NCBI GenBank assembly: GCA_017441705.1
Contig: JAFRWU010000007.1
Coordinates: 1-45,607 of the forward strand
Length of the DNA stretch: 45,607 nucleotides
Origin: Clostridia bacterium
GTDB lineage: Bacteria > Bacillota > Clostridia > Oscillospirales > QAMX01
Direction: 5' to 3'
Shown one piece after another: positions 2,382 through 18,857 of this stretch (the first letter of the stretch is position 1; each line of letters opens with the position of its first letter). Both the position numbers and the translations under genes were made by a program. The notes under the pieces were generated by a model. The model was not told the origin of the DNA and searched no databases. It saw only the letters and a program-made list of their open reading frames with translations.

Positions 2382-3098
2382 ATGGCTTTATACGCGATCG
2401 GGGATCTGCATCTTTCCCATGCGGTGAACAAATCCATGACCGTCTTCGGCGGCGTGTGGGAAAACTACGTGGAAAAGATCGAAACGAACTGGCGCGCCAA
2501 GGTCCGGGAAGAGGACACCGTGGTGGTTCTTGGCGATTTTTCCTGGGGCGTTTCCTTTGAGGAATGCCGGGAGGATTTCCTGTTCCTGGAAAGGCTCCCG
2601 GGGAAAAAGATCCTCCTGAAGGGCAATCACGACTATTACTGGACCACCCTGAAAAAGATGAACGCCTTTCTGGCGGAGACCGGCGTTGAAAGCGTCTCGT
2701 TTCTGTTCAACAACAGCTTCACGTACCGGGGCGAAGACGGCGAAGCGGCGATCTGCGGCACCCGCGGCTGGTTTTACGAGGAGGGCGGCGATCCCAAAAT
2801 CTACAACCGGGAGCTGGGCAGGCTGGAAACCTCGCTCCGCGCGGCGGAGGAGAAGCTGGAGAAGCTTGCCTTTCTGCATTATCCGCCCTTCGGCGTGGGG
2901 GATCCCCGGTCTCAGGTCACCGATCTATTGGAAAAATACGACGTGAAGCGCGTCTGGTACGGTCATCTTCACGGCGCGGCGCTCTTCGGCGTGCGGGCGG
3001 AGACCTCCTTCCGGGGGATCTGCTACCGGCTGGCGTCGGCCGACTTTATCGGCTTCGATCCGGTCCGGATCCCGTTTTCCGGTCCGGCAGAAGGCTGA
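2382..3098 (+). CDS. Calcineurin-like metallophosphoesterase
   Basis: A 238-residue predicted phosphohydrolase with all five family motifs: GDLHLSH (Asp8, His10), GDFSWG (Asp52), GNHDYYW (Asn82, His83), HYPPFG and YGHLHG near residue 190. These residues bind a two-metal centre. The whole length is one catalytic domain, as in the COG1768-type cytoplasmic phosphohydrolases. No signal peptide is seen. The ATG is preceded by GGGAGGACGGC. It stands alone between the DUF1540 gene and tig. The substrate is unknown. Confidence 0.9.
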   Translation: MALYAIGDLHLSHAVNKSMTVFGGVWENYVEKIETNWRAKVREEDTVVVLGDFSWGVSFEECREDFLFLERLPGKKILLKGNHDYYWTTLKKMNAFLAETGVESVSFLFNNSFTYRGEDGEAAICGTRGWFYEEGGDPKIYNRELGRLETSLRAAEEKLEKLAFLHYPPFGVGDPRSQVTDLLEKYDVKRVWYGHLHGAALFGVRAETSFRGICYRLASADFIGFDPVRIPFSGPAEG

Positions 3099-3107
3099 AA
3101 AACAGGG

Positions 3108-3167
3108 AAAAAGCCCGCCGCGCGGGAGAGACACCAAAAGAATCCCGGATTCGGCGGCTTTTTTTGT
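3108..3167 (+). terminator. Possible terminator after the phosphoesterase gene
   Basis: The arm at 3108-3120 (AAAAAGCCCGCCG) can pair with 3152-3165 (CGGCGGC then T run) with one bulged C, and a run of seven T follows. The loop is long (about 30 bases), so this is weaker than the other terminators in the window. Confidence 0.45.
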
Positions 3168-3176
3168 AAAACGGGG

Positions 3177-3205
3177 TAGAAATCGGCGCGGGAATGTGTT
3201 ATACT
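3177..3205 (+). promoter_or_regulatory. Promoter of tig (extended -10)
   Basis: TAGAAA at 3177-3182 and TATACT at 3200-3205 are separated by 17 bases, and a TGT directly before the -10 makes it an extended -10 promoter. It lies about 75 bases before the tig start. Confidence 0.65.
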
Positions 3206-3278
3206 ATCCTTTGCCTCATCGGCAAACGCCCGAAGGCGTCCCCGGACGCCAACCAAAGAGAAAGGTTTGAAACGAGTT

Positions 3279-4619
3279 ATGAGCTTAAAGAACGTGGAAA
3301 GACAGGAAAAGAACATCGCGGTCCTGGAGATCAGCGTCGACAAGGAAACCTTCGCCGCCGCCTGTCAGAAGGCCTACCGCAAGAACGTGGGAAAGATCAT
3401 GATCAACGGCTTCCGCAAAGGAAAGGCGCCGCGTCATATCGTTGAAAGAATTTACGGCAAGGACGTCTTCTATGAAGACGCCGTCGAGGATACGTATCCC
3501 GCCGCCTACGAAGCGGCCTGCAAGGAAGCGGGACTGGACATCGTCTCCCGCCCCGAGCTGACCATCAAGGAGATCGGAGAAGACGGATATACCTTCACCG
3601 CGAAGGTCGCCCTCAAGCCCGAGATCACCGTGAAGCAGTACAAGGGCCTGGAAGCCCCCTATACCGAACCCGTCGTCACCGACGAGGAGGTGGACGCCGA
3701 GATCGATATCCGCCGCAAAAAAAGCAGCCGTCTGGAGGACAAGGACGGTGAGGCCGAGCTGGGCGACACCGTGATCATCGATTACGAAGGCTTCCGCGAC
3801 GGCAAGCCCTTCGAGGGAGGCAAGGGCGAGGATCATCATCTGAAGCTCGGCTCCGGTTCCTTCATTCCTGGCTTTGAGGATCAGCTCGTGGGCAAAAAGG
3901 CCGGCGAGGAATACGAGATCAAGGTCACCTTCCCGACCGAATACCACGCGCCCGATCTGGCCGGCAAGGAAGCCACCTTCAAGGGGATCGTGCACGGCGT
4001 GAAGAAGGAGATCCTGCCCGAGCTGGACGACGATTTTGCCAGCGAGGTCTCGGAATTCGATACGCTTGACGAATACAGAGAGGATACCCGGAAAAAGCTT
4101 CTGGAGAACAAGACCAAGGCCGCCGACGCGAGCTTTGAAAACGCCCTTCTCGGCAAGATGATCGAGACCATTGAGGGAGACATCCCTGAAGCTATGTATG
4201 AGACCGAAGGGGACAACCTCGCTTCGGAGTACAGCTACCGGATGCAGAGCCAGGGCATCACCCTGGAAAACTATCTCAAGATCACCGGGCTCGACATGGA
4301 CGGCTTCCGCAAGAGCCTGAGACCGCAGGCCGAGAACCGCGTGAAGACCACCCTCGCCCTGGAATACGTGGCGAAGACCGAAGGCCTGGAGGTTTCGGAC
4401 GAGGACGTCGAAGCCGAATACAGGAAGATGGCCGACGAATACGGCATGGAGCTTGACCGGGTCAAGGAAATGGTCCCCGCCGAGGGCATGAAGCACGACC
4501 TTCTGATGCAGAAGGCGTCTGCTCTGGTACGCGACGCCGGCGTGAAGACCGAGCCCGCGCCGGAGAGCGAGGAAGCGCCCGCCGGAGAAAAGACCGAAGA
4601 GGAGACGGCCGCCGAATAA
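3279..4619 (+). CDS. tig: Trigger factor, ribosome-associated chaperone and prolyl isomerase
   Basis: A 446-residue three-domain chaperone. The N-terminal ribosome-binding domain contains GFRKGKAPRHIVERIYG (about residues 44-60), the signature loop that docks on the ribosome. A PPIase (FKBP-like) domain follows with DYEGFRDGKPFEGGKG and LGSGSFIPGFEDQLVG, then a helical C-terminal domain. The tail ends in an acidic Glu-rich stretch (PESEEAPAGEKTEEE). I chose the ATG at 3279 over an in-frame TTG at 3267 because AAAGG at 3261-3265 touches the TTG but lies 13 bases before the ATG, and MSLKNVE matches the family start. It is followed by clpP and clpX, the usual order. Confidence 0.96.
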   Translation: MSLKNVERQEKNIAVLEISVDKETFAAACQKAYRKNVGKIMINGFRKGKAPRHIVERIYGKDVFYEDAVEDTYPAAYEAACKEAGLDIVSRPELTIKEIGEDGYTFTAKVALKPEITVKQYKGLEAPYTEPVVTDEEVDAEIDIRRKKSSRLEDKDGEAELGDTVIIDYEGFRDGKPFEGGKGEDHHLKLGSGSFIPGFEDQLVGKKAGEEYEIKVTFPTEYHAPDLAGKEATFKGIVHGVKKEILPELDDDFASEVSEFDTLDEYREDTRKKLLENKTKAADASFENALLGKMIETIEGDIPEAMYETEGDNLASEYSYRMQSQGITLENYLKITGLDMDGFRKSLRPQAENRVKTTLALEYVAKTEGLEVSDEDVEAEYRKMADEYGMELDRVKEMVPAEGMKHDLLMQKASALVRDAGVKTEPAPESEEAPAGEKTEEETAAE

Positions 4620-4758
4620 GACGTCTGTATAATTCGGTGCGTCCCGGCGTACAATCGAAGAGAACGGGCGTCCTGAGGTGGTTTCCCGCACGCGGGGGCT
4701 CTTCACGGCGCCCGATCCGCCTGAAAGGCACAGATTCACATTCAAAGGAGGAAACGAA

Positions 4759-9288: not shown

Positions 9289-10728
9289 ATGGCATTATCG
9301 GAACTGATCAAATACGAAGGCGACAACTCCACCTTTATCTGGAAATACCCGCACGAAGATTTCAACAGCATGACCGAGCTTGTCGTTCACGAATCGCAGG
9401 AGGCGATCTTCGTCGCCAACGGCCGCGCGGCTGACACCTTCGGCCCGGGGCGGTATAAGCTGGACGCGAAAAACATCCCGATCCTGACCGGTCTTCTCAA
9501 CATCGTCACCGGCGTCAGCATCTTCCATTGCGAGGTCTATTTCATCAACAAGACCGTGCAGATGGCGATGAAATGGGGCACCGATTCCAAGGTGCGCTTC
9601 ATCGAACCCACGCTGGGGATCCCCTTGGAGCTGGGCGCGTCGGGCGATCTTAATCTCGCGGTGTCCGACGGGAGAAAGCTGCTCTTCCGTCTGGTGGGGA
9701 CCACCGGCGGCGTCGCCTGGGGAGACGGCCCGGGCTTCACCAAATCGCTGCAGGCCTCCTTCCGCCCCCTGATCTCCACCGAGGTGAAATCCAGCCTCCC
9801 CTCGGCGATCAAGGCGAGAAATATCGACGTGGTGGAGATCGACGAGCATCTTTCGGCGCTTTCCGAAGAGCTGAAAAAGCGGATCGCGCCGGGCTTTGAG
9901 GAATACGGCCTGACCGTTCCGCAGTTTTATCTGACCACGGTGGTGCTTCCCGAGACCGATCCGAATTTCAAAAGGCTGAAGGATCTGCACACCCTGACGC
10001 TGCAGAAGCGCGCGGCCGCGGCGGAAGCCGAGGTGCGCACCGCGGAGGCCGAAAGCCGCGCTGCCTACAAAAAGGCGGAGGCGGCCGCGGAGGCGGAGAT
10101 CAGGGCCGCGGAACGCGGCGCTATCCTGGAGGCCGAGACCACCCAGACCGAGATCGCCCGCCGGGCCGCCGAAAGAAAGCTGATCGAGGCGGAGGCGGAA
10201 GCCCGCGCCGCCCGGATGGCCGGCCTGACCGAGGCCGAGATCATGCAGGCCAAGGGCTACAACCAGAAGGACGTCCTGCAGGCCGAGGTGCAGAAGGCCT
10301 ATGCCGAGGGGATCGGCAACATGGGTCCCGCGGTCTCTTCCGGGGGAGGCTCTTCGGTGGTGGGCGACATGCTGGGTCTCGGGGTGGGCATGGCGGCCAT
10401 GGGCGCCGTGGCGCCGCAGGTCGGCGAGATGATGCGCGGCTTTGCTCCGTCTCAGGGAGCCGCCGAAAAACCCGCCTCACCCGAAAAGATCCCCTGCCCG
10501 CAGTGCGGGAATCTTCTGCCGCTGAACGCGAAATTCTGTCTGGAATGCGGCGCGAAGATCGAAGCGCTCGGAGAAAATGAAATGATCTGCCCGGCCTGCG
10601 GGAAGAAGACTCCGAAAGGAAAGTTCTGCATGGAATGCGGCGCGCCCATGAAACGGGTCTGTCCCCAATGCGGCGCAGACGTGCCGGAAGGCGGAAAATT
10701 CTGCCTGGAATGCGGAACGAAGCTCTGA
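9289..10728 (+). CDS. SPFH/band-7 domain protein with C-terminal zinc ribbons
   Basis: A 479-residue protein of the YdjI-like SPFH group. Residues about 30-240 form the SPFH (band-7) fold. They are followed by an Ala/Glu/Arg-rich coiled coil (about 245-330, with repeats such as AEAEVRTAEAESRAA), then a Gly/Met-rich linker. Three CxxC...CxxC zinc ribbons lie at about 403-479 (CPQCGN, CPACGK, CPQCGA, each closed by C-x-E-C-G). Such proteins form membrane-associated or oligomeric scaffolds. No clear transmembrane segment is seen at the N terminus. It has a consensus promoter and is followed after 49 bases by the first TIR gene, which also begins with a zinc ribbon. The role in this operon is inferred to be scaffolding. 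Confidence 0.88.
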   Translation: MALSELIKYEGDNSTFIWKYPHEDFNSMTELVVHESQEAIFVANGRAADTFGPGRYKLDAKNIPILTGLLNIVTGVSIFHCEVYFINKTVQMAMKWGTDSKVRFIEPTLGIPLELGASGDLNLAVSDGRKLLFRLVGTTGGVAWGDGPGFTKSLQASFRPLISTEVKSSLPSAIKARNIDVVEIDEHLSALSEELKKRIAPGFEEYGLTVPQFYLTTVVLPETDPNFKRLKDLHTLTLQKRAAAAEAEVRTAEAESRAAYKKAEAAAEAEIRAAERGAILEAETTQTEIARRAAERKLIEAEAEARAARMAGLTEAEIMQAKGYNQKDVLQAEVQKAYAEGIGNMGPAVSSGGGSSVVGDMLGLGVGMAAMGAVAPQVGEMMRGFAPSQGAAEKPASPEKIPCPQCGNLLPLNAKFCLECGAKIEALGENEMICPACGKKTPKGKFCMECGAPMKRVCPQCGADVPEGGKFCLECGTKL

Positions 10729-10777: not shown

Positions 10778-13700
10778 ATGACTGTCTTCAAATGCAAGAT
10801 GTGCGGCGGTACGATCGAATTCGAGCAGGGAGCGACGGTCGGCGTATGCGATTCCTGCGGGACGAAACAGACCCTTCCCCGTCTGGACGACGACCGGAGG
10901 GCGAATCTCTACGACCGCGCAAACCACTTCCGCCGCGCCAACGAATTCGACAAGGCGGCAGGAATCTATGAGCAGATCCTGAACGAAGACAAGACCGACG
11001 CGGAGGCGTACTGGTCGCTTGTTCTCTGCCGCTACGGCATCGAATACGTAGAGGACCCGGCGACCCGTAAGCGCGTTCCGACGGTCAACCGCGCGCAGTA
11101 CACGTCGGTTTTCGACGACGACAATTACAAATCCGCACTGCAGTACGCAGACGGCTATCAGCGTTCCCTTTACGAAGAAGAAGCGAATACGATCAACGAG
11201 ATCCAGAAGGGCATCCTTGCCATTTCGCAGAACGAGGAGCCCTTCGACGTCTTCATCTGCTACAAGGAAACCGATCAGAACGGAAGAAGAACGCCGGACA
11301 GCGTGCTGGCGAACGACCTGTACCATCAGTTGACCAACGAGGGCTTCAAGGTATTCTTCTCCAGAATCACACTGGAGGACAAGCTCGGCACGGCGTACGA
11401 GCCGTATATTTTCGCGGCGCTCAATTCTTCCAGGGTGATGGTCGTGCTCGGTACGAAGGCGGAATACTTCAACGCGGTCTGGGTCAAGAACGAATGGAGC
11501 CGTTATCTGGCGCTTGTCAAACAGAGCGGCGGGAAGAAGATCCTGATCCCGGCGTACCGGGACATGGATCCCTACGATCTGCCGGAGGAGTTTTCGCACC
11601 TGCAGGCGCAGGACATGTCGAAGCTCGGGTTTATGCAGGACCTGATGCGCGGAATCAGGAAGATTGCTCAGGCGGACGAACCGAAGCCGGCCGCAAAGGA
11701 GACCGTTGTTGTGAACCAGACTGCGGCGGGGAATACCGCGCCGCTCCTGAAGCGCGCCTTCATGTATCTGGAGGACGGGAACTGGGGTGAGGCGGACGCG
11801 TACTGCGAGCGCGTTCTGGATCAGGACCCCGAAAATGCGGAGGCGTATCTCGGGAAGCTGATGGCCGAACTGAAGCTCCGGAAGGAAGCAGATTTTGAAG
11901 GACTGATCTCCGCTTTTGACAGGAGCACGAATTATCAGAAGGCGATCCGCTTCGGTGATAAGGCAATTGTTGAAAAGCTAAAGACATGGAACAGTAACGC
12001 GCCGAAGGAAGGTATCTATCAATCGGCAAAAAAGGAATTGAAGAACGCACGTAATGCCGTATCCTATAAAGCGGTATCGCAATCGTTTGCAAGGATTCAA
12101 GGATACAAGGATGCGGATGCACTTCGGGAAAAGGCGCTTTCACTTGCTGAAGACAGCATAAAGGATGATATCTATAAAAAAGCGATTAAGGCAATGATCG
12201 ACGGAGCGGACGCAAAGGATCGCGCATCGCTTTCTTCAAATTATGATTCCAGAATAAAGCAATATGAAACAGCCAAAAGCCTATTCAAACAAGTCCCTGG
12301 TTGGCGTGACGCAGATGAGAAAGTGGCGGTATGTGAAAAAGCGATAGATGACCTGCATACTGAGCAGAAACGAACCGAGGAAGAAGAAAAAGAGGCGAGG
12401 CTTGCCAAGGAGAAGAGGAAGAAAAAGGCAAGGAAGATCGCGGCGATCGTGATCCCGGCCGTGGCGGTCCTGACGGCGATCGCGATCCTTCTGCCGACGG
12501 TCATTATTCCCGCCATTAAGTATAATTCTGCGGTGCAGTTACTGAAAGAGGGAAAGTACGAAGAAGCCATTACTGCCTTCCAGCTTTTGAACGGGTACAA
12601 AGACAGCGCTGCGAGAATTGATGAAAGCAAAAATGAAAGCGCATATCATCATGCCCTTGGGCTTATGAACGAAGGCCAATACGAAGAAGCAAAGAAAGAG
12701 TTTATTAGCCTTCATGGCTACAGAGACAGCAAAGTGAAGATAGAAGAGTGTGATAACGCTCTATGTGACAACAGTTACCAAAAAGCTTTATCGGAAGCGG
12801 AAGCTGGTAGAAAAAAAGAAGCGATTAAGCTTTTACAAGGTATAGAGCAATATAAAGATGCATCCGAATTAATTATTCAGTATAAATATGACATGGCTCT
12901 TGAATTGTTCGAAAACGGAAAGTATGAATTGGCAATAGATGCCTTTTCCGATCTGTCCGGCTATAGCGATAGCAAGGATAAGATCAAAGAGTGCCAACAG
13001 CTTTTAGACGACAAACAATTGGAAGACGAGTATAATAGAGCAGTATTGCATTTACAGAATCAAGAATATGTTGAGGCAATAAAAGCGTTCAAAGCCTTGA
13101 ACGGCTACAAGGACAGTGAAGAAAGAATAGAGCGAATACGTACAGATATGTTCAAAAAAGCTTCGGTTGGGTCTTCATTGTTTCTGGGAAGCTATGAACA
13201 AGATAATATCAGGAATAACGGAAAGGAGGAAATTGAATGGCAGATCCTCGATATTAAAGGAGATAAAGCTTTGCTGATCAGTAAATATGCTTTGGACTTT
13301 CGACCGTACAACGAAGAACGAAAAGACGTGACATGGGAGACCTGCACCTTAAGAAAATGGTTAAATGACGGGTTTATTTCCGATGCGTTCTCTGATTCGG
13401 AAAAGAAGCTTCTTCTCAATACCACGATAAGTGCGGATAAGAATTCCAAGTATAAGGACGTTAGCCCGGGGAAAACCACCACAGACAAGGTTTTCTTATT
13501 GAGTATACGGGAGGCAGAAGAATACTTCCCGAATTCCACAAACAGAATGTGTCCTATTACTGCATACGCTTTATCAAGGCAACAAAAAATTCTCAACATT
13601 ACTGCGGACAATATTGGTATTATAAATGAGTATTGGTGGTTGAGAACGCCAGGCTTATACTCAAGTTATGCATCATTTGTTTCAAGTAACGGTGAAATCC

Positions 13701-13819
13701 TTTATAACGGCGTTGAGGTAAACGGTGGAGGAACTGTAAATTTTGGATCATACTATATGTCGGATGTCAATCCGGTGGTCCGTCCCGCCATGTGGATCGA
13801 TCTTGGGGCGGCGGGATGA
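10778..13819 (+). CDS. Transmembrane TIR-domain protein with zinc ribbon, repeats and DUF6273-like domain (paralogue 1)
   Basis: A 1013-residue protein. An N-terminal zinc ribbon (Cys6, Cys9, Cys24, Cys27) is followed by TPR-like helices (about 40-150). A TIR domain (about 155-300) starts at FDVFICYKE and contains VFFSRITLEDK and AVWVKNEW, where Glu239 sits in the position of the NADase glutamate of enzymatic TIRs. More helices follow (about 325-540). A single membrane helix (about 555-577) comes after a very basic KEKRKKKARK, so the N-terminal part should be cytoplasmic. After it come four or five repeats of the kind LLKEGKYEEAITAF..L.GYKDS (about 580-790) and a DUF6273-like C-terminal domain with WWLRTPG and NPVVRPAMWIDLG. 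Base composition falls sharply in the 3' part. Enzyme activity and ligand are unknown. Confidence 0.88.
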   Translation: MTVFKCKMCGGTIEFEQGATVGVCDSCGTKQTLPRLDDDRRANLYDRANHFRRANEFDKAAGIYEQILNEDKTDAEAYWSLVLCRYGIEYVEDPATRKRVPTVNRAQYTSVFDDDNYKSALQYADGYQRSLYEEEANTINEIQKGILAISQNEEPFDVFICYKETDQNGRRTPDSVLANDLYHQLTNEGFKVFFSRITLEDKLGTAYEPYIFAALNSSRVMVVLGTKAEYFNAVWVKNEWSRYLALVKQSGGKKILIPAYRDMDPYDLPEEFSHLQAQDMSKLGFMQDLMRGIRKIAQADEPKPAAKETVVVNQTAAGNTAPLLKRAFMYLEDGNWGEADAYCERVLDQDPENAEAYLGKLMAELKLRKEADFEGLISAFDRSTNYQKAIRFGDKAIVEKLKTWNSNAPKEGIYQSAKKELKNARNAVSYKAVSQSFARIQGYKDADALREKALSLAEDSIKDDIYKKAIKAMIDGADAKDRASLSSNYDSRIKQYETAKSLFKQVPGWRDADEKVAVCEKAIDDLHTEQKRTEEEEKEARLAKEKRKKKARKIAAIVIPAVAVLTAIAILLPTVIIPAIKYNSAVQLLKEGKYEEAITAFQLLNGYKDSAARIDESKNESAYHHALGLMNEGQYEEAKKEFISLHGYRDSKVKIEECDNALCDNSYQKALSEAEAGRKKEAIKLLQGIEQYKDASELIIQYKYDMALELFENGKYELAIDAFSDLSGYSDSKDKIKECQQLLDDKQLEDEYNRAVLHLQNQEYVEAIKAFKALNGYKDSEERIERIRTDMFKKASVGSSLFLGSYEQDNIRNNGKEEIEWQILDIKGDKALLISKYALDFRPYNEERKDVTWETCTLRKWLNDGFISDAFSDSEKKLLLNTTISADKNSKYKDVSPGKTTTDKVFLLSIREAEEYFPNSTNRMCPITAYALSRQQKILNITADNIGIINEYWWLRTPGLYSSYASFVSSNGEILYNGVEVNGGGTVNFGSYYMSDVNPVVRPAMWIDLGAAG

Positions 13820-13890
13820 CCTTGCGGCCGCACATCATACAGCCGCAAAACGGACGGAGCGATCCGTAAATCTCAAAAAGGAGAAAGAGT

Positions 13891-16629
13891 ATGGCGATCC
13901 TGAAATGCAAAATGTGCGGGGGAGATATCGAACTCTCCGCTGACAAGACCTTCGGGACATGCGATTCCTGTGGGAGCACGATGACCTTCCCGCGGATCGA
14001 CGACGACCAAAAAGCGGCCATGTTCAACCGCGGCAACCACTTCCGGCGCTCGGGTGAGTTCGACAAAGCCCTCACGGTTTACGAACGCATTCTGGAGGAG
14101 GACGAAAGCGACGCGGAGGCTCACTGGTGCGCCGCACTGTGCCGTTTCGGGATCGAGTATGTGGAGGATCCGGCGACGCTGGAATACATACCAACCTGTC
14201 ACCGTGCCAGCTTCGACAGCTTCCTGGAGGACGTGGATTACAAGGCGGCGCAGGAACATTCCGAGGGGGTCACGAGAAGGCAGTATCAGAAAGACGCAGC
14301 AAAGATCGCGGAGGTTCAGAAGGGGATCCTTGCCACTTCGCAGAACGAGGAGCCCTTCGACGTCTTCATCTGCTACAAGGAATCTGAAAACGACGGCACG
14401 CGGACGCGGGACAGCCTTCTTGCCCAGGATATCTATTATCAGCTGAGCGAGAAGGGCTGGCGGGTATTCTTCTCACGAATAACGCTGGAAGACAAGGCGG
14501 GGACCGAGTATGAACCGTACATCTTCGCGGCCCTGAATTCGGCGAAGGTCATGGTGGTCGTCACAACGTCGGCCGAGCATGTGAACGCAGTCTGGGTGAA
14601 GAACGAATGGAGCAGATACCTTGCCTTGATGAGGAAGGACCGGAAGAAGCTGCTTCTGCCGTGTTACCGGGACATGGATCCCTACGATCTGCCGGAAGCG
14701 CTGTCGGTGCTCCAGTCCTACGATATGTCAAAGATCGGGTTCATCCAGGATCTGATCCGTGGGATCAACAAGGTTTTGGAAGCCGAGACACCGAAGGAGA
14801 CCGTGCGCGAGACAGTGGTCGTAAACCAAACTGCTGCTGTGGCAGGGAATACTGCACCGTTGCTGAAACGCGCCTACATGTTTCTTGAAGACGGTGATTG
14901 GGAAAGGGCTGACGAATTCTGCGAGCAAGTCCTGAATCAGGACCCGGAAAACGCAGAGGCCTATCTCGGGAAGTTGATGGCTGAACTGAAACTCAGGAGA
15001 GAAGCAGACTTTGAAAATCTAACAGAGTCCTTCGACAAGAACCCGAATTACGAAAAGGCTGTCCGTTTCGGGGATGAAGCACTTAGGGAAAAGCTTCGGG
15101 CCTGGAATGAAAAAGCGCCGAAGGAAGGAACCTATCAGTCCGCGGTAAATATGCTGAAAAATGCATCAAACGAAGGAACATTCATGGCAGCCGCACAGAT
15201 CTTTGCCAAAGTTCCGGGATACAAGGATACAGACACGCTTCGTGAAAAAGCGCTAGTCAAAGCCGAGGAATGCCGGAAGGCCAGTATTTACAGGGAAGCG
15301 GACAACAAATACCGAGAGGCCAACCGACGTGCATCGGATCAGGAACGTCTGGCCGCGCTTGTTAAAGAGGATGAAGACGCGATCACAAAGCTTTATACAG
15401 CCGCAAGGCTCCTGTATCTGCAAGCCCCAGGCTGGCTCGACGCCGATCAGAAGGCGGAGGAGTGCGAAGAGGCTATTGTCGACTACCGCACAAAGAAAGA
15501 TGCGGCTGAGAAGGAAGCGGCGCGCAAAGCGGAAGAGGAAAGAGCATACGCGAAGAAAAGGAAGAAGAAAACAAGGCTCATCGTAGCGATCGTAACGACG
15601 AGTGTCGTGACGTGTATTGCATTTGTTGTCCTGCTCATAAAAGTAATCATTCCAACCAGCAAATACAACGCAGCGGTCGATCTTTACAACGAAGGGAAAT
15701 ATGAAGAAGCCATTTTGGCGTTCCAGAATCTTAACGGATATAAGGACAGCCAAAACAAGATCAAAGAATGCGATAATGCCATCAAGGAACCGCAGTACAA
15801 CAAGGCGGTACAGCTAATGAACGAGGGTCAATACAGCGATGCCATAAAGATCTTTAGTGAACTGGTTGGATATAAAGACTGTTACCGTCAGATTGAAAAC
15901 TGCGAAACTGCGATAAAGGAAAACAAGTATACTGCAGCAATAGAATTGTATGAAAAAGGCGATTATTCTCATGCAGAGGATGCCTTTATTGAACTAAAGG
16001 ATTATAAAGACAGTAGTGAAAAGGCGAGGAATTGTAGAATTAAACTTCAATTTGGTTCTTTAATTGGTGTTTCTGTAGGATCAATTATAAAGCTTGGGAC
16101 TTACGAGCAGGATAATAATACTGCTAATGGTAAAGAGAGCATTGAATGGTTGGTCCTTAAGAAAGAAGAAAACAAATATCTGGCCGTAAGTAAGTACGTA
16201 TTGGATTGCCTACCCTTTGATGACAGTAACGGTACAAATTCGCTAAGCAGTTCTGCTCTTTGGCAATATAGCACGCTTCGCAGATGGTTGATTAACGACT
16301 TTTTCAATAACGCATTCAATAATGACGATAAAGTGTTGCTTAATAGTTCCACTGATAGAGTGACGCTTCTAAGCCTTGCTGAAGTAGAGGAATTGTTTAA
16401 CTCTGACAATGAAAGAAAATGCAAGGGAACGGAGTACAGCTTCGCAAAAGGTGTAAGCAGACACGATGACAATACATGTACTTGGTGGTTGCGAACCCCT
16501 AAAACAGATGTAAAAAATTATGTTGAAGTTGTTGTCGAAGACGGTAGATGCAATATTATCGCCTATATCGGTGAAATGTTCATCGGTGTCCGTCCTGCGA
16601 TATGGATTGATCTTGGAACAATTGATTGA
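13891..16629 (+). CDS. Transmembrane TIR-domain protein with zinc ribbon, repeats and DUF6273-like domain (paralogue 2)
   Basis: A 912-residue paralogue with the same order of parts: zinc ribbon (Cys6, Cys9, Cys24, Cys27), TPR-like helices, TIR (about 155-300, FDVFICYKES, FFSRITLEDK, AVWVKNEW with Glu239), basic stretch and one membrane helix (about 565-587), fewer GYKDS-type repeats than paralogue 1, then a DUF6273-like domain ending WWLRTP and GVRPAIWIDLG. Start ATG at 13891 has AAAGGAG upstream. Stretches of the TIR region are identical at DNA level to paralogue 1, including 45 bases around FDVFICYKE (11224-11268 and 14338-14382), while the C-terminal halves differ strongly. The stop abuts the SIR2 gene start. 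Confidence 0.88.
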   Translation: MAILKCKMCGGDIELSADKTFGTCDSCGSTMTFPRIDDDQKAAMFNRGNHFRRSGEFDKALTVYERILEEDESDAEAHWCAALCRFGIEYVEDPATLEYIPTCHRASFDSFLEDVDYKAAQEHSEGVTRRQYQKDAAKIAEVQKGILATSQNEEPFDVFICYKESENDGTRTRDSLLAQDIYYQLSEKGWRVFFSRITLEDKAGTEYEPYIFAALNSAKVMVVVTTSAEHVNAVWVKNEWSRYLALMRKDRKKLLLPCYRDMDPYDLPEALSVLQSYDMSKIGFIQDLIRGINKVLEAETPKETVRETVVVNQTAAVAGNTAPLLKRAYMFLEDGDWERADEFCEQVLNQDPENAEAYLGKLMAELKLRREADFENLTESFDKNPNYEKAVRFGDEALREKLRAWNEKAPKEGTYQSAVNMLKNASNEGTFMAAAQIFAKVPGYKDTDTLREKALVKAEECRKASIYREADNKYREANRRASDQERLAALVKEDEDAITKLYTAARLLYLQAPGWLDADQKAEECEEAIVDYRTKKDAAEKEAARKAEEERAYAKKRKKKTRLIVAIVTTSVVTCIAFVVLLIKVIIPTSKYNAAVDLYNEGKYEEAILAFQNLNGYKDSQNKIKECDNAIKEPQYNKAVQLMNEGQYSDAIKIFSELVGYKDCYRQIENCETAIKENKYTAAIELYEKGDYSHAEDAFIELKDYKDSSEKARNCRIKLQFGSLIGVSVGSIIKLGTYEQDNNTANGKESIEWLVLKKEENKYLAVSKYVLDCLPFDDSNGTNSLSSSALWQYSTLRRWLINDFFNNAFNNDDKVLLNSSTDRVTLLSLAEVEELFNSDNERKCKGTEYSFAKGVSRHDDNTCTWWLRTPKTDVKNYVEVVVEDGRCNIIAYIGEMFIGVRPAIWIDLGTID

Positions 16630-17562
16630 ATGAGAAATAGTATGAATAACAATAAAGATGTGTATCGACCGGGAAAAACGTTGCTTCTCGGAAACGGGAT
16701 CAATCGCGCATTCAGCAAAAACTCCTGGGATGATATGTTGAAGAGCGTCGCGACAAGGAACGATTTCGAACCAGGAAAAATGAATGCGCCGATGCCGCTG
16801 CGTGCCGTGATCCTGACCGACGACAAGATCGATCAGGCGGCTAAAAACCTGAAAGAGATGTTCTGCGGAGAAATCACGGATCTGGAACATGGCGACCTGC
16901 TGAGACGGCTTCTTTCAGCAGGATTCGACGACGTCCTGACCACCAATTACAGTTACGAGCTTGAAACGGCAGCGAAAGGAGCAGAACGCCTTTCGGAGGG
17001 ACAAATCGCGGGCATGATGCGGCATACGGAAGGAAACCGGGCGGAAGCGCGTTATCTTCTTCACACCTTCAACGAGGTCGCCTGCGAAGGAAGAAATAAT
17101 CGGATCTGGCACGTTCACGGAGAAAGCCGGAAGCCGGACAGTATGCTCCTGGGACATTACTGGTACGGAAATCTGACGGCGCGGATCGCCGCGGAGGTAA
17201 AGAGCAACGGGAACCGGTACCGGGAGCTTGAGAAGAAAAACGCGCCTCTTCCGCGAAACAGCTGGATCGACGGGTTCCTTCTGGACGATCTCTTTATCCT
17301 CGGATTCGGGTTCGATCTTTCGGAGATCGATCTGTGGTGGCTTCTCAACCGCCGCAAGCGGGAAAAGGCACGGAAAGGAAAAATCGTCTTTTACGATCCC
17401 CGGATCGATCTTGAGGAGAACCGGGAGCGCAAAGCCCTTCTGGAATTGATGGACGTCAAGACCGTTTCCTTTGCCGGTTACGGGATCGAAAAAGAGGATT
17501 ATCAGGAGTTTTACAGAAGGGCGGTCCGCGATATCTGCGACGTCGTAAAAGAGCGCGGGTAA
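16630..17562 (+). CDS. SIR2-like domain protein
   Basis: A 310-residue protein of the SIR2-like (PF13289-type) group. The NAD-binding loop is LLLGNGINRAF (about 18-28), DDVLTTNYSYELE carries the TTNY motif (Asn106), IWHVHGE the catalytic-type His (His163), and LFILGFGFDLSEID ends the Rossmann-like core. Proteins with this fold are NAD-consuming effectors in several bacterial defence systems. The ATG follows the previous stop directly (TGAATG), with no good ribosome site, so translation is probably coupled; an alternative ATG lies 12 bases later. No membrane segment is seen. I infer an effector or partner of the TIR proteins. Confidence 0.85.
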   Translation: MRNSMNNNKDVYRPGKTLLLGNGINRAFSKNSWDDMLKSVATRNDFEPGKMNAPMPLRAVILTDDKIDQAAKNLKEMFCGEITDLEHGDLLRRLLSAGFDDVLTTNYSYELETAAKGAERLSEGQIAGMMRHTEGNRAEARYLLHTFNEVACEGRNNRIWHVHGESRKPDSMLLGHYWYGNLTARIAAEVKSNGNRYRELEKKNAPLPRNSWIDGFLLDDLFILGFGFDLSEIDLWWLLNRRKREKARKGKIVFYDPRIDLEENRERKALLELMDVKTVSFAGYGIEKEDYQEFYRRAVRDICDVVKERG

Positions 17563-17957: not shown

Positions 17958-18857
17958 TTATTCTTTACTCAGCCGTCCCGCGGCGTACCCGATGTATTCG
18001 TTTGCCGCCCGGCGGCCGTTGTACCAAAGGCGGTAACTCCCGTCGGAGGCGCGGACCGCGGTGGGCTTGTAGCAGGAGTCGGCGTCCCAGCCGCCCGGCG
18101 TCGGCGTTACGAGGGGGTTTTCCGGAACGCGGACCCAACCGGTGATCCCGTCCCGGGAACGCGCCGCCGATATGGAGGCCGTGTGGATGTCGCGGTATCC
18201 GATATAGAACATCAGATAGCCGCCGTCCTCCTCCCGGAGGACGTCGCAGGCGCCGATCCGCTCCCTTTCGTATTCGTTTTCGGGGGCGGCGGTGAAGACG
18301 GGGTTATGCGGATCCTTCCGCCAATGCTCGCCGTCCTCGGATTCGGCAAAACAGATCGCGTTCGGCTCGTAGGTCTCGCCCGCGGCGTACCACATCCGGA
18401 AACGCCCGTCTTCGTAAAGAACGAAGGGATTCATGACCGACTCGCGCTCGAACGGGGTTTCGGGCGAAAGTACGGGGTCTTTCCGGAAACGGTGAAAGGA
18501 GATCCCGTCCTCCGAACGAGCCAGACCGATCCACGACCTGCCGTGATCGCCGTTCCATACCTGACCGGTGTACCACATGAGCCAGCCGTTCCCGGCGGGA
18601 TCCGGCAGGACGCAGTTCCGGTTGACGATATCCTCCCATCCGGTGGAGGGGTCGCACCCCAGCGTGATCACCGGCTTTTCCCAGTGGATCCCGTCGTCCG
18701 AAAAGGTCACGGCCAGGGCTTTTTCGGGGCGCCAGGAGACGTCCATGCGAAGTCTTCCGTCCCGTTCCCGGACGAAGGCGTCGAACATCGTGCCGGTCGA
18801 AGCGTCTCCGAAGACCGGAGATGCGTATTTTTCAAAAGAGCCCTGAAAAACGGTCAT
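17958..18857 (-). CDS. Five-bladed beta-propeller glycosidase-like protein
   Basis: A 299-residue protein with repeated blade motifs: SDDGIHWEKP, SEDGISFHRF, SEDGEHWRKD and SRDGITGWVR, each preceded by a W-Y/F-x-G or MWY-type strand (LMWYTG, RMWYAAG, LMFYIG, RLWYNG). This pattern is typical of the GH43/GH32/GH130-type propeller superfamily, cytoplasmic here because no signal peptide is present. I cannot assign a family or catalytic residues with certainty. The start has AAAGGGG upstream, and it lies 19 bases after the DUF4091 gene, so the two form one operon. A role in breakdown of imported glycans is inferred. Confidence 0.75.
   Translation of the reverse strand: MTVFQGSFEKYASPVFGDASTGTMFDAFVRERDGRLRMDVSWRPEKALAVTFSDDGIHWEKPVITLGCDPSTGWEDIVNRNCVLPDPAGNGWLMWYTGQVWNGDHGRSWIGLARSEDGISFHRFRKDPVLSPETPFERESVMNPFVLYEDGRFRMWYAAGETYEPNAICFAESEDGEHWRKDPHNPVFTAAPENEYERERIGACDVLREEDGGYLMFYIGYRDIHTASISAARSRDGITGWVRVPENPLVTPTPGGWDADSCYKPTAVRASDGSYRLWYNGRRAANEYIGYAAGRLSKE

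What the first reader, a model, noticed from the sequence alone, without database searches (positions are those of the whole stretch)
10778..16629. TIR-side halves are conserved while external halves diverge and are AT-rich
The cytoplasmic halves of both paralogues are GC-rich and share stretches of identical DNA, for example 45 bases around FDVFICYKE (11224-11268 and 14338-14382). After the membrane helix (from about 12530 and 15650) base composition falls and the sequences and repeat numbers diverge. This fits gene conversion keeping the enzyme half uniform while the sensor half is replaced or evolves fast, as in immune receptors.
Basis: partly seen in the sequence, partly recalled or inferred. 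Interest (0 to 1): 0.7.

Follow-up and report, generated by a model that had tools for sequence, protein, structure and literature searches.

The report
Bacterial TIR receptors with swappable ectodomains
Two neighbouring genes in a gut-type Clostridia bacterium encode membrane receptors that keep a near-constant internal TIR enzyme module but carry interchangeable external binding domains, and in two relatives the external lectin tip is the target of a dedicated hypermutation retroelement, so bacteria seem to build and diversify surface receptors much as immune systems do.

Summary
The contrast is real, but the boundary and the mechanism need correcting. A (10778-13819) and B (13891-16629) are a zinc ribbon, TPR and TIR module, a cytoplasmic linker, one membrane helix, external KDS repeats and a DUF6273 lectin. 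In both genes GC3 and conservation fall just after the TIR domain (about residue 300-360), well before the membrane helix. Gene conversion has not kept the TIR halves of A and B alike: synonymous sites are saturated, and a tree uniting them is rejected (p-AU 2.7e-10). Each TIR half instead belongs to its own cross-species class (89-92% identity elsewhere). The segment A and B share is the post-TIR linker (residues ~326-450; 99% support), and other loci repeat this. Across 129 relatives the C-terminal part is shuffled almost independently of the TIR module: C-type lectin, RCC1, BspA leucine-rich repeats and others. In about half of the DUF6273 relatives the lectin tip shows a diversity-generating-retroelement signature. 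Two relatives carry complete cassettes beside the receptor, with 21/21 and 16/17 mismatches at template adenines. The window's own genes lack that signature, and its genome has no detected reverse transcriptase. Defence or recognition function and NADase activity are inferred, not shown.

The parts
9289..10728 (+). SPFH/Band-7 protein with C-terminal zinc ribbons, first gene of the operon
   Evidence: Pfam Band_7_1 E 3e-35 and DZR; SPFH gene found in 70 of 115 receptor loci, many of the rest being truncated contigs
10778..13819 (+). Receptor A (1013 aa), A-class
   Evidence: ORF, Pfam, 88-92% N-module relatives in other taxa
10778..11632 (+). A: conserved module, zinc ribbon + TPR + TIR (catalytic-type Glu208); GC3 tracks host
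   Evidence: TIR_2 at residues 158-282; E208 in 129/129 relatives; GC3 slope 0.97 against host
11753..12127 (+). A: post-TIR linker segment (residues ~326-450) shared specifically with B; GC3 edge at ~11858
   Evidence: windowed best-hit scan, rank 1; linker tree SH-aLRT 99; GC3
12437..12493 (+). A: membrane helix, basic residues on the N side (N-in, C-out inferred)
   Evidence: hydropathy 2.89 at residue 554
12515..13147 (+). A: external KDS/TPR-like repeats
   Evidence: sequence; about 53% identical to B where aligned
13184..13816 (+). A: DUF6273 C-type-lectin domain; tip has an insert (46 codons against 33) and no retroelement signature
   Evidence: Pfam E 9e-28; model pLDDT 89.7; fold matches; NNY 0.60
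13891..16629 (+). Receptor B (912 aa), B-class
   Evidence: ORF, Pfam; N module 89% to L137, 62% to A
13891..14742 (+). B: conserved module, zinc ribbon + TPR + TIR
14866..15240 (+). B: post-TIR linker shared with A
15577..15633 (+). B: membrane helix
   Evidence: hydropathy 2.75 at residue 563
16171..16611 (+). B: DUF6273 lectin domain, no retroelement signature
   Evidence: Pfam E 2e-13; NNY 0.65
16630..17562 (+). SIR2-like gene, accessory in this locus
   Evidence: SIR2_2 E 2.5e-7; SIR2 relatives found in only 5 of 115 loci

Best explanation
A and B are two classes of a modular surface receptor family of gut and rumen Clostridia. An outer domain (here a C-type lectin on a repeat stalk) binds an external ligand. 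The single membrane helix passes the signal to a cytoplasmic linker and TIR module held near an SPFH membrane scaffold. The TIR domain, with its conserved glutamate, is inferred to process NAD and may feed the adjacent SIR2 protein. The family evolves in three blocks: a slowly evolving enzyme module in separate A and B lineages, a linker homogenised within each locus (probably so that partners match), and an outer part exchanged by recombination. In some relatives the lectin tip is also hypermutated by an adjacent diversity-generating retroelement. Shown here: architecture, block-wise ancestry, domain exchange, the GC3 step, complete cassettes in two relatives, and no sign of one for this window. 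Inferred: topology, NADase activity, signalling order, ligand, and a defensive role.
For: Domains. Patchy distribution across families, 21 of 391 class genomes, with N modules up to 90% identical and 77 loci in genome contigs. Windowed best-hit scan and trees: p-AU 2.7e-10 against A+B in the N module, SH-aLRT 99 for A+B in the linker. Cross-class same-locus linker identity 0.48 against 0.33 (p 5e-4), with no significant difference in the N module. C-type labels 56 changes against 63 shuffled. GC3 step family-wide: slope 0.97 against host in the N module, 0.53 in the outer part. dN/dS profile. Lectin fold. Retroelement signature and cassettes in relatives. A 286-bp identical lectin-tail copy in L119.
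Against: No function was tested. The window's own lectins show no retroelement signature and its genome no reverse transcriptase. dN/dS stays below 1 in the clean pair, so positive selection is not shown. PADLOC gives no defence family. Most loci are metagenome-assembled contigs, some truncated. Many members lack a lectin. The linker is matched in only about half of the mixed A/B pairs.
Confidence: 0.62

Rival explanations
1. Gene conversion between A and B keeps the TIR half uniform while the outer half diverges.
For: Two identical stretches of 46 and 32 bp. N-module homogenisation is seen in some tandem same-class relatives.
Against: Saturated synonymous sites in the TIR half of A and B. The A+B clade is rejected for the N module, p-AU 2.7e-10. 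Each half is about 90% identical to its own class in other species.
Confidence: 0.05
2. There is no domain exchange. The whole gene descends vertically, the outer half is only less constrained, and AT-richness reflects relaxed codon selection.
For: dN/dS is lower in the N module with uniform dS in L165/L170. Outer parts of many members align.
Against: Unrelated tail folds sit on near-identical TIR modules. Linker and N-module trees disagree. dS cliffs at residue ~285-360. GC3 is low even at A/B-identical outer sites.
Confidence: 0.1
3. The receptors are not defence sensors but adhesion, nutrient or host-glycan sensors whose TIR domain regulates metabolism.
For: No match to known defence families. 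DUF6273 also occurs in an IgA peptidase. Retroelement targets in cells are often membrane-anchored binding proteins (PMC8144416). The family was found in gut and rumen bacteria.
Against: The catalytic-type TIR glutamate is invariant, a SIR2 gene is adjacent in some loci, the distribution is patchy and shared between families, and ectodomains turn over rapidly. All of this is indirect.
Confidence: 0.3

Closest known systems
Retroelement-diversified C-type-lectin proteins with TIR domains in cyanobacteria and Thiohalocapsa (PMC7517822, PMC10907252)
   Same: C-terminal C-type lectin, TIR in some targets or neighbours, retroelement hypermutation proposed to diversify sensors.
   Different: Those are mostly cytosolic or STAND/MoxR-linked and from multicellular bacteria. 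Here a single membrane-spanning protein has a zinc ribbon-TPR-TIR module and DUF6273 outside, in an SPFH operon of gut Clostridia, and exchanges its lectin with unrelated ectodomains.
DUF6273 targets of phage diversity-generating retroelements (tentaclins PMC10743442; Faecalibacterium prophages PMC11792537)
   Same: DUF6273 C-type-lectin fold with a retroelement variable repeat; in the Faecalibacterium prophages it maps to the C-terminal end of DUF6273, as in the relatives here.
   Different: Phage proteins; here the domain is the ectodomain of a bacterial TIR receptor. No viral contig matched the N-module patterns.
Thoeris
   Same: TIR protein and SIR2 protein side by side in this locus.
   Different: No Thoeris model passes cut-off (ThcB4 26 bits against 220). 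SIR2 is rare in the family, and the receptor is membrane-bound with an ectodomain.
Animal Toll-like receptors
   Same: Ectodomain, one membrane helix, cytoplasmic TIR; some relatives carry leucine-rich repeats outside.
   Different: Inverted order (TIR at the N side), bacterial BspA-type repeats, enzyme-type TIR; analogy, not membership.

Membership tests
TIR domain NADases (PF13676) | Sequence match above the curated cut-off | tested here: met
   50.7 and 48.7 bits against 28
TIR domain NADases (PF13676) | Catalytic-type glutamate | tested here: met
   E208 in 129 of 129 relatives; its equivalence to the SARM1 glutamate is from memory
TIR domain NADases (PF13676) | NAD cleavage | not testable with these tools
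   needs an enzyme assay
C-type lectin fold, DUF6273 type | DUF6273 profile match | tested here: met
   97.7 and 51.2 bits against 23.5
C-type lectin fold, DUF6273 type | Fold | tested here: met
   Model of A's domain, pLDDT 89.7; Z 16.6 to the IgA peptidase domain, 6.9 to TvpA, 5.2 to Mtd; values under 8 are only supportive, but they agree with published DUF6273 models (PMC10743442)
Target of a diversity-generating retroelement (window genes) | Adenine-type variable codons at the lectin tip | tested here: not met
   NNY fraction 0.60 and 0.65 against 0.85-1.0 in signature-bearing relatives
Target of a diversity-generating retroelement (window genes) | Reverse transcriptase and template repeat in the genome | tested here: not met
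   none found in a 98% complete draft
Target of a diversity-generating retroelement (relatives L116, L125) | Template repeat with mismatches at adenines, Avd, SQ-motif reverse transcriptase next to the receptor | tested here: met
   21/21 and 16/17 mismatches at A (p 2e-14, 8e-9); L116 Avd-like match to bAvd is 36.1 bits against cut-off 40, so below the curated threshold; L116 RVT_1 E 5e-20; LGNQTSQ motif in both
Thoeris | Thoeris TIR or ThsA profile above cut-off | tested here: not met
   PADLOC none; NCBIfam far below cut-off
Toll-like receptors | N-terminal extracellular leucine-rich repeats, membrane helix, C-terminal TIR | tested here: not met
   TIR is N-terminal and A and B have lectins; some relatives have leucine-rich repeats at the other end

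The most novel reading that the evidence does not exclude
Gut Clostridia carry a mobile family of bacterial surface TIR receptors whose ectodomains are exchanged like cassettes (lectin, leucine-rich repeat, propeller) and, in some species, are continually hypermutated by an adjacent retroelement: a prokaryotic counterpart of diversified innate receptors that triggers NAD-based cell defence.
Probability: 0.35. Interest if true: 0.88.

Novelty: new variant of a known kind. Interest (0 to 1): 0.66.

Why it matters
TIR sensors of bacteria are mostly known as cytosolic proteins (own knowledge). A membrane-spanning receptor with exchangeable and sometimes hypermutable ectodomains would make it testable whether bacteria recognise phages or rivals from outside the cell by receptor diversification. 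The linker that is matched within loci points to a specificity part that can be tested directly.

Tried and rejected
Recent A/B gene conversion in the TIR half: rejected. Site conservation or amino-acid content as cause of the GC drop: rejected. A retroelement acting on the window genes: no reverse transcriptase, template or codon signature. Known defence system: PADLOC and NCBIfam gave nothing above cut-off. Viral carriage: no viral contig matched the N-module patterns, which is a strict test. The ~233-aa membrane partner found in many related loci was not found in this genome, but the query is divergent, so this is not conclusive. Apart from L116, no reverse-transcriptase locus fetched held a template matching a receptor tip. 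Published mention of this architecture was not found in the held library, which lacks many journals and bioRxiv.

Full report
OBSERVATION. A (10778-13819, 1013 aa) and B (13891-16629, 912 aa) follow an SPFH/zinc-ribbon gene (9289-10728) and precede a SIR2-like gene (16630-17562). Both are zinc ribbon, TPR, TIR, TPR-like linker, one membrane helix, KDS repeats, DUF6273. Aligned, they are 70% identical in TIR and 42% in DUF6273. GC3 goes from about 0.8 to about 0.4. The quoted identical stretch is 46 bp and there is one other of 32 bp. At residues identical in both, codon identity in 1-285 is 0.55 against 0.50 expected from shuffled codons (z 1.7), so the TIR halves are at or near synonymous saturation.

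BOUNDARY. In A, GC3 is 0.77 at residues 286-360 and 0.47 from 361 on, where N-module codon usage would predict 0.77; in B it is 0.60 at 286-360 and 0.53 after. Low GC3 holds also at outer residues identical in A and B. In 100 relatives, GC3 of the N module tracks neighbouring genes (slope 0.97) while the part beyond +250 residues has slope 0.53. The outer part is lower than the N module in 93 of 100, and in GC-rich hosts the step falls within about 90 residues after TIR. The fall in amino-acid conservation is at the same place: A against L107 gives 0.88, 0.93, 0.71, then 0.36 at 361-440 and 0.35 at 441-540, rising to 0.57 around and after the membrane helix. The least conserved part is therefore cytoplasmic.

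ANCESTRY IN BLOCKS. N-module relatives occur in 21 of 391 genomes of the class, in many families, up to 90% identical, and in 77 loci of genome contigs. They fall into an A class and a B class. In the N module, A's neighbour B ranks about 93-125 of 136 relatives. At residues about 326-450 B is A's best match of all (at 351-420, 73% against 55% for the next), and in DUF6273 B is again among the most distant. Trees agree: the A+B clade is rejected for the N module (lnL 222 worse, p-AU 2.7e-10) and is supported at 99 for the linker. The same appears in other mixed loci (L117, L119, L127, L137, L156, L177). Over 18 same-locus A/B pairs, linker identity (+60 to +150 after TIR) averages 0.48 against 0.33 in different loci (p 5e-4), with no significant difference in the N module. 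Homogenisation within the locus thus acts on the linker. I read this as gene conversion or joint replacement, perhaps because the linker pairs the two receptors; that reading is inference.

Some same-class pairs have young N modules and old tails: L111 tandem (codon identity 0.93 at 151-285, at chance at 361-440), L152, L101, L158, and L167/L162 across genomes (0.88-0.94 to residue 360, then 0.51 against 0.50 expected). Conversion of the N module and replacement of the tail after duplication cannot be told apart here.

TAIL EXCHANGE. Tails include DUF6273, RCC1 repeats, BspA-type leucine-rich repeats, List_Bact repeats, RHS-like repeats, YARHG, and bare membrane anchors. Mapped on the N-module tree, tail type needs 56 changes, against a shuffled mean of 63 and minimum 58, so it is nearly uncoupled. 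L119 holds a detached lectin tail identical over 286 bp to its neighbour's, a direct trace of copying unless it is an assembly fault.

SELECTION. In L165/L170, whose dS is uniform (about 0.33-0.45), dN/dS is 0.05 in the N module, 0.17-0.22 in the linker, 0.44 in the stalk, 0.27 in the lectin and 0.63 in its last 45 residues. Constraint is weaker outside; values stay below 1.

LECTIN AND HYPERMUTATION IN RELATIVES. A's DUF6273 model (pLDDT 89.7) has the C-type lectin fold, with Z 16.6 to an IgA peptidase domain, 6.9 to TvpA and 5.2 to Mtd, the last two being retroelement targets. Among 25 equal-length tips (24 from relatives, plus B's own), variable codons differ mostly at positions 1 and 2 while position 3 is much less variable and at some sites nearly fixed, the reverse of normal drift. 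L116 has receptor, Avd-like gene, template repeat and reverse transcriptase within 5 kb: 21 of 21 mismatches lie at template adenines (p 2e-14). L125 has a second complete cassette: 16 of 17 (p 8e-9). The L116 Avd-like match is 36.1 bits against a cut-off of 40, while the reverse transcriptase is clear. Remnants lie downstream of receptors in L111, L119 and L171. The window's genes show no such signature (NNY 0.60 and 0.65) and its genome no reverse transcriptase or template. About half of the DUF6273 tips scored have NNY of 0.85 or more.

MECHANISM. Inferred: ligand binding outside, clustering at the SPFH scaffold, TIR activation (Glu208 invariant in 129 of 129), NAD-derived signal or depletion, with SIR2 as a local accessory (5 of 115 loci). 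A defence role is the favoured but untested reading. Sensing of host glycans or rivals is the main rival.

NOVELTY. Retroelement-diversified lectins with TIR domains are known in cyanobacteria and Thiohalocapsa (PMC7517822, PMC10907252), and DUF6273 as a phage retroelement target (PMC10743442, PMC11792537). The membrane-spanning TIR receptor family with exchangeable ectodomains in an SPFH operon of gut Clostridia was not found in the papers searched, so I call it a new variant of a known kind.

Noticed in passing
L116:334-4758: Complete diversity-generating retroelement cassette adjacent to a TIR receptor: receptor 334-2820, Avd-like 2943-3341, template 3393-3506, reverse transcriptase 3712-4755.
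   Followed up: yes
L125:10001-14456: Second, independent complete cassette; Avd-like frame about 12639-13022, template 13072-13185, reverse transcriptase 13386-14456.
   Followed up: yes
L111:11117-11302, L119:12468-12671, L171:13782-14537: Reverse-transcriptase (and in L171 Avd) remnants just downstream of receptors, suggesting cassettes that decayed and left frozen lectin tips.
   Followed up: partly
L119:8474-8759 and 12140-12425: Detached lectin tail identical over 286 bp to the tail of the neighbouring receptor, variable tip included.
   Followed up: partly
L078:5960-7603, L079:6518-8167, L103:5220-6737: The membrane protein that follows the SPFH gene is fused to DUF6273 in these loci, so the same ectodomain is used by another operon member.
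   Followed up: no
L117:5921-6625 and the same place in many loci: About 233-aa multi-helix membrane protein with a YSDPMS motif and no Pfam match, directly after SPFH in most related loci, not found in the window genome.
   Followed up: partly
L066 to L074 (G022): One genome with 15 matches to the TIR-module query, many at contig ends; either a large expansion or repeats that broke the assembly.
   Followed up: no
L083 and L084 (G000 C79 and C99): Two further TIR proteins in the window's genome, only distantly related to A and B.
   Followed up: no
window 17958-18857 minus strand: Glycosidase-like gene (GH32/43/130 profile matches) just after the operon on the opposite strand.
   Followed up: no
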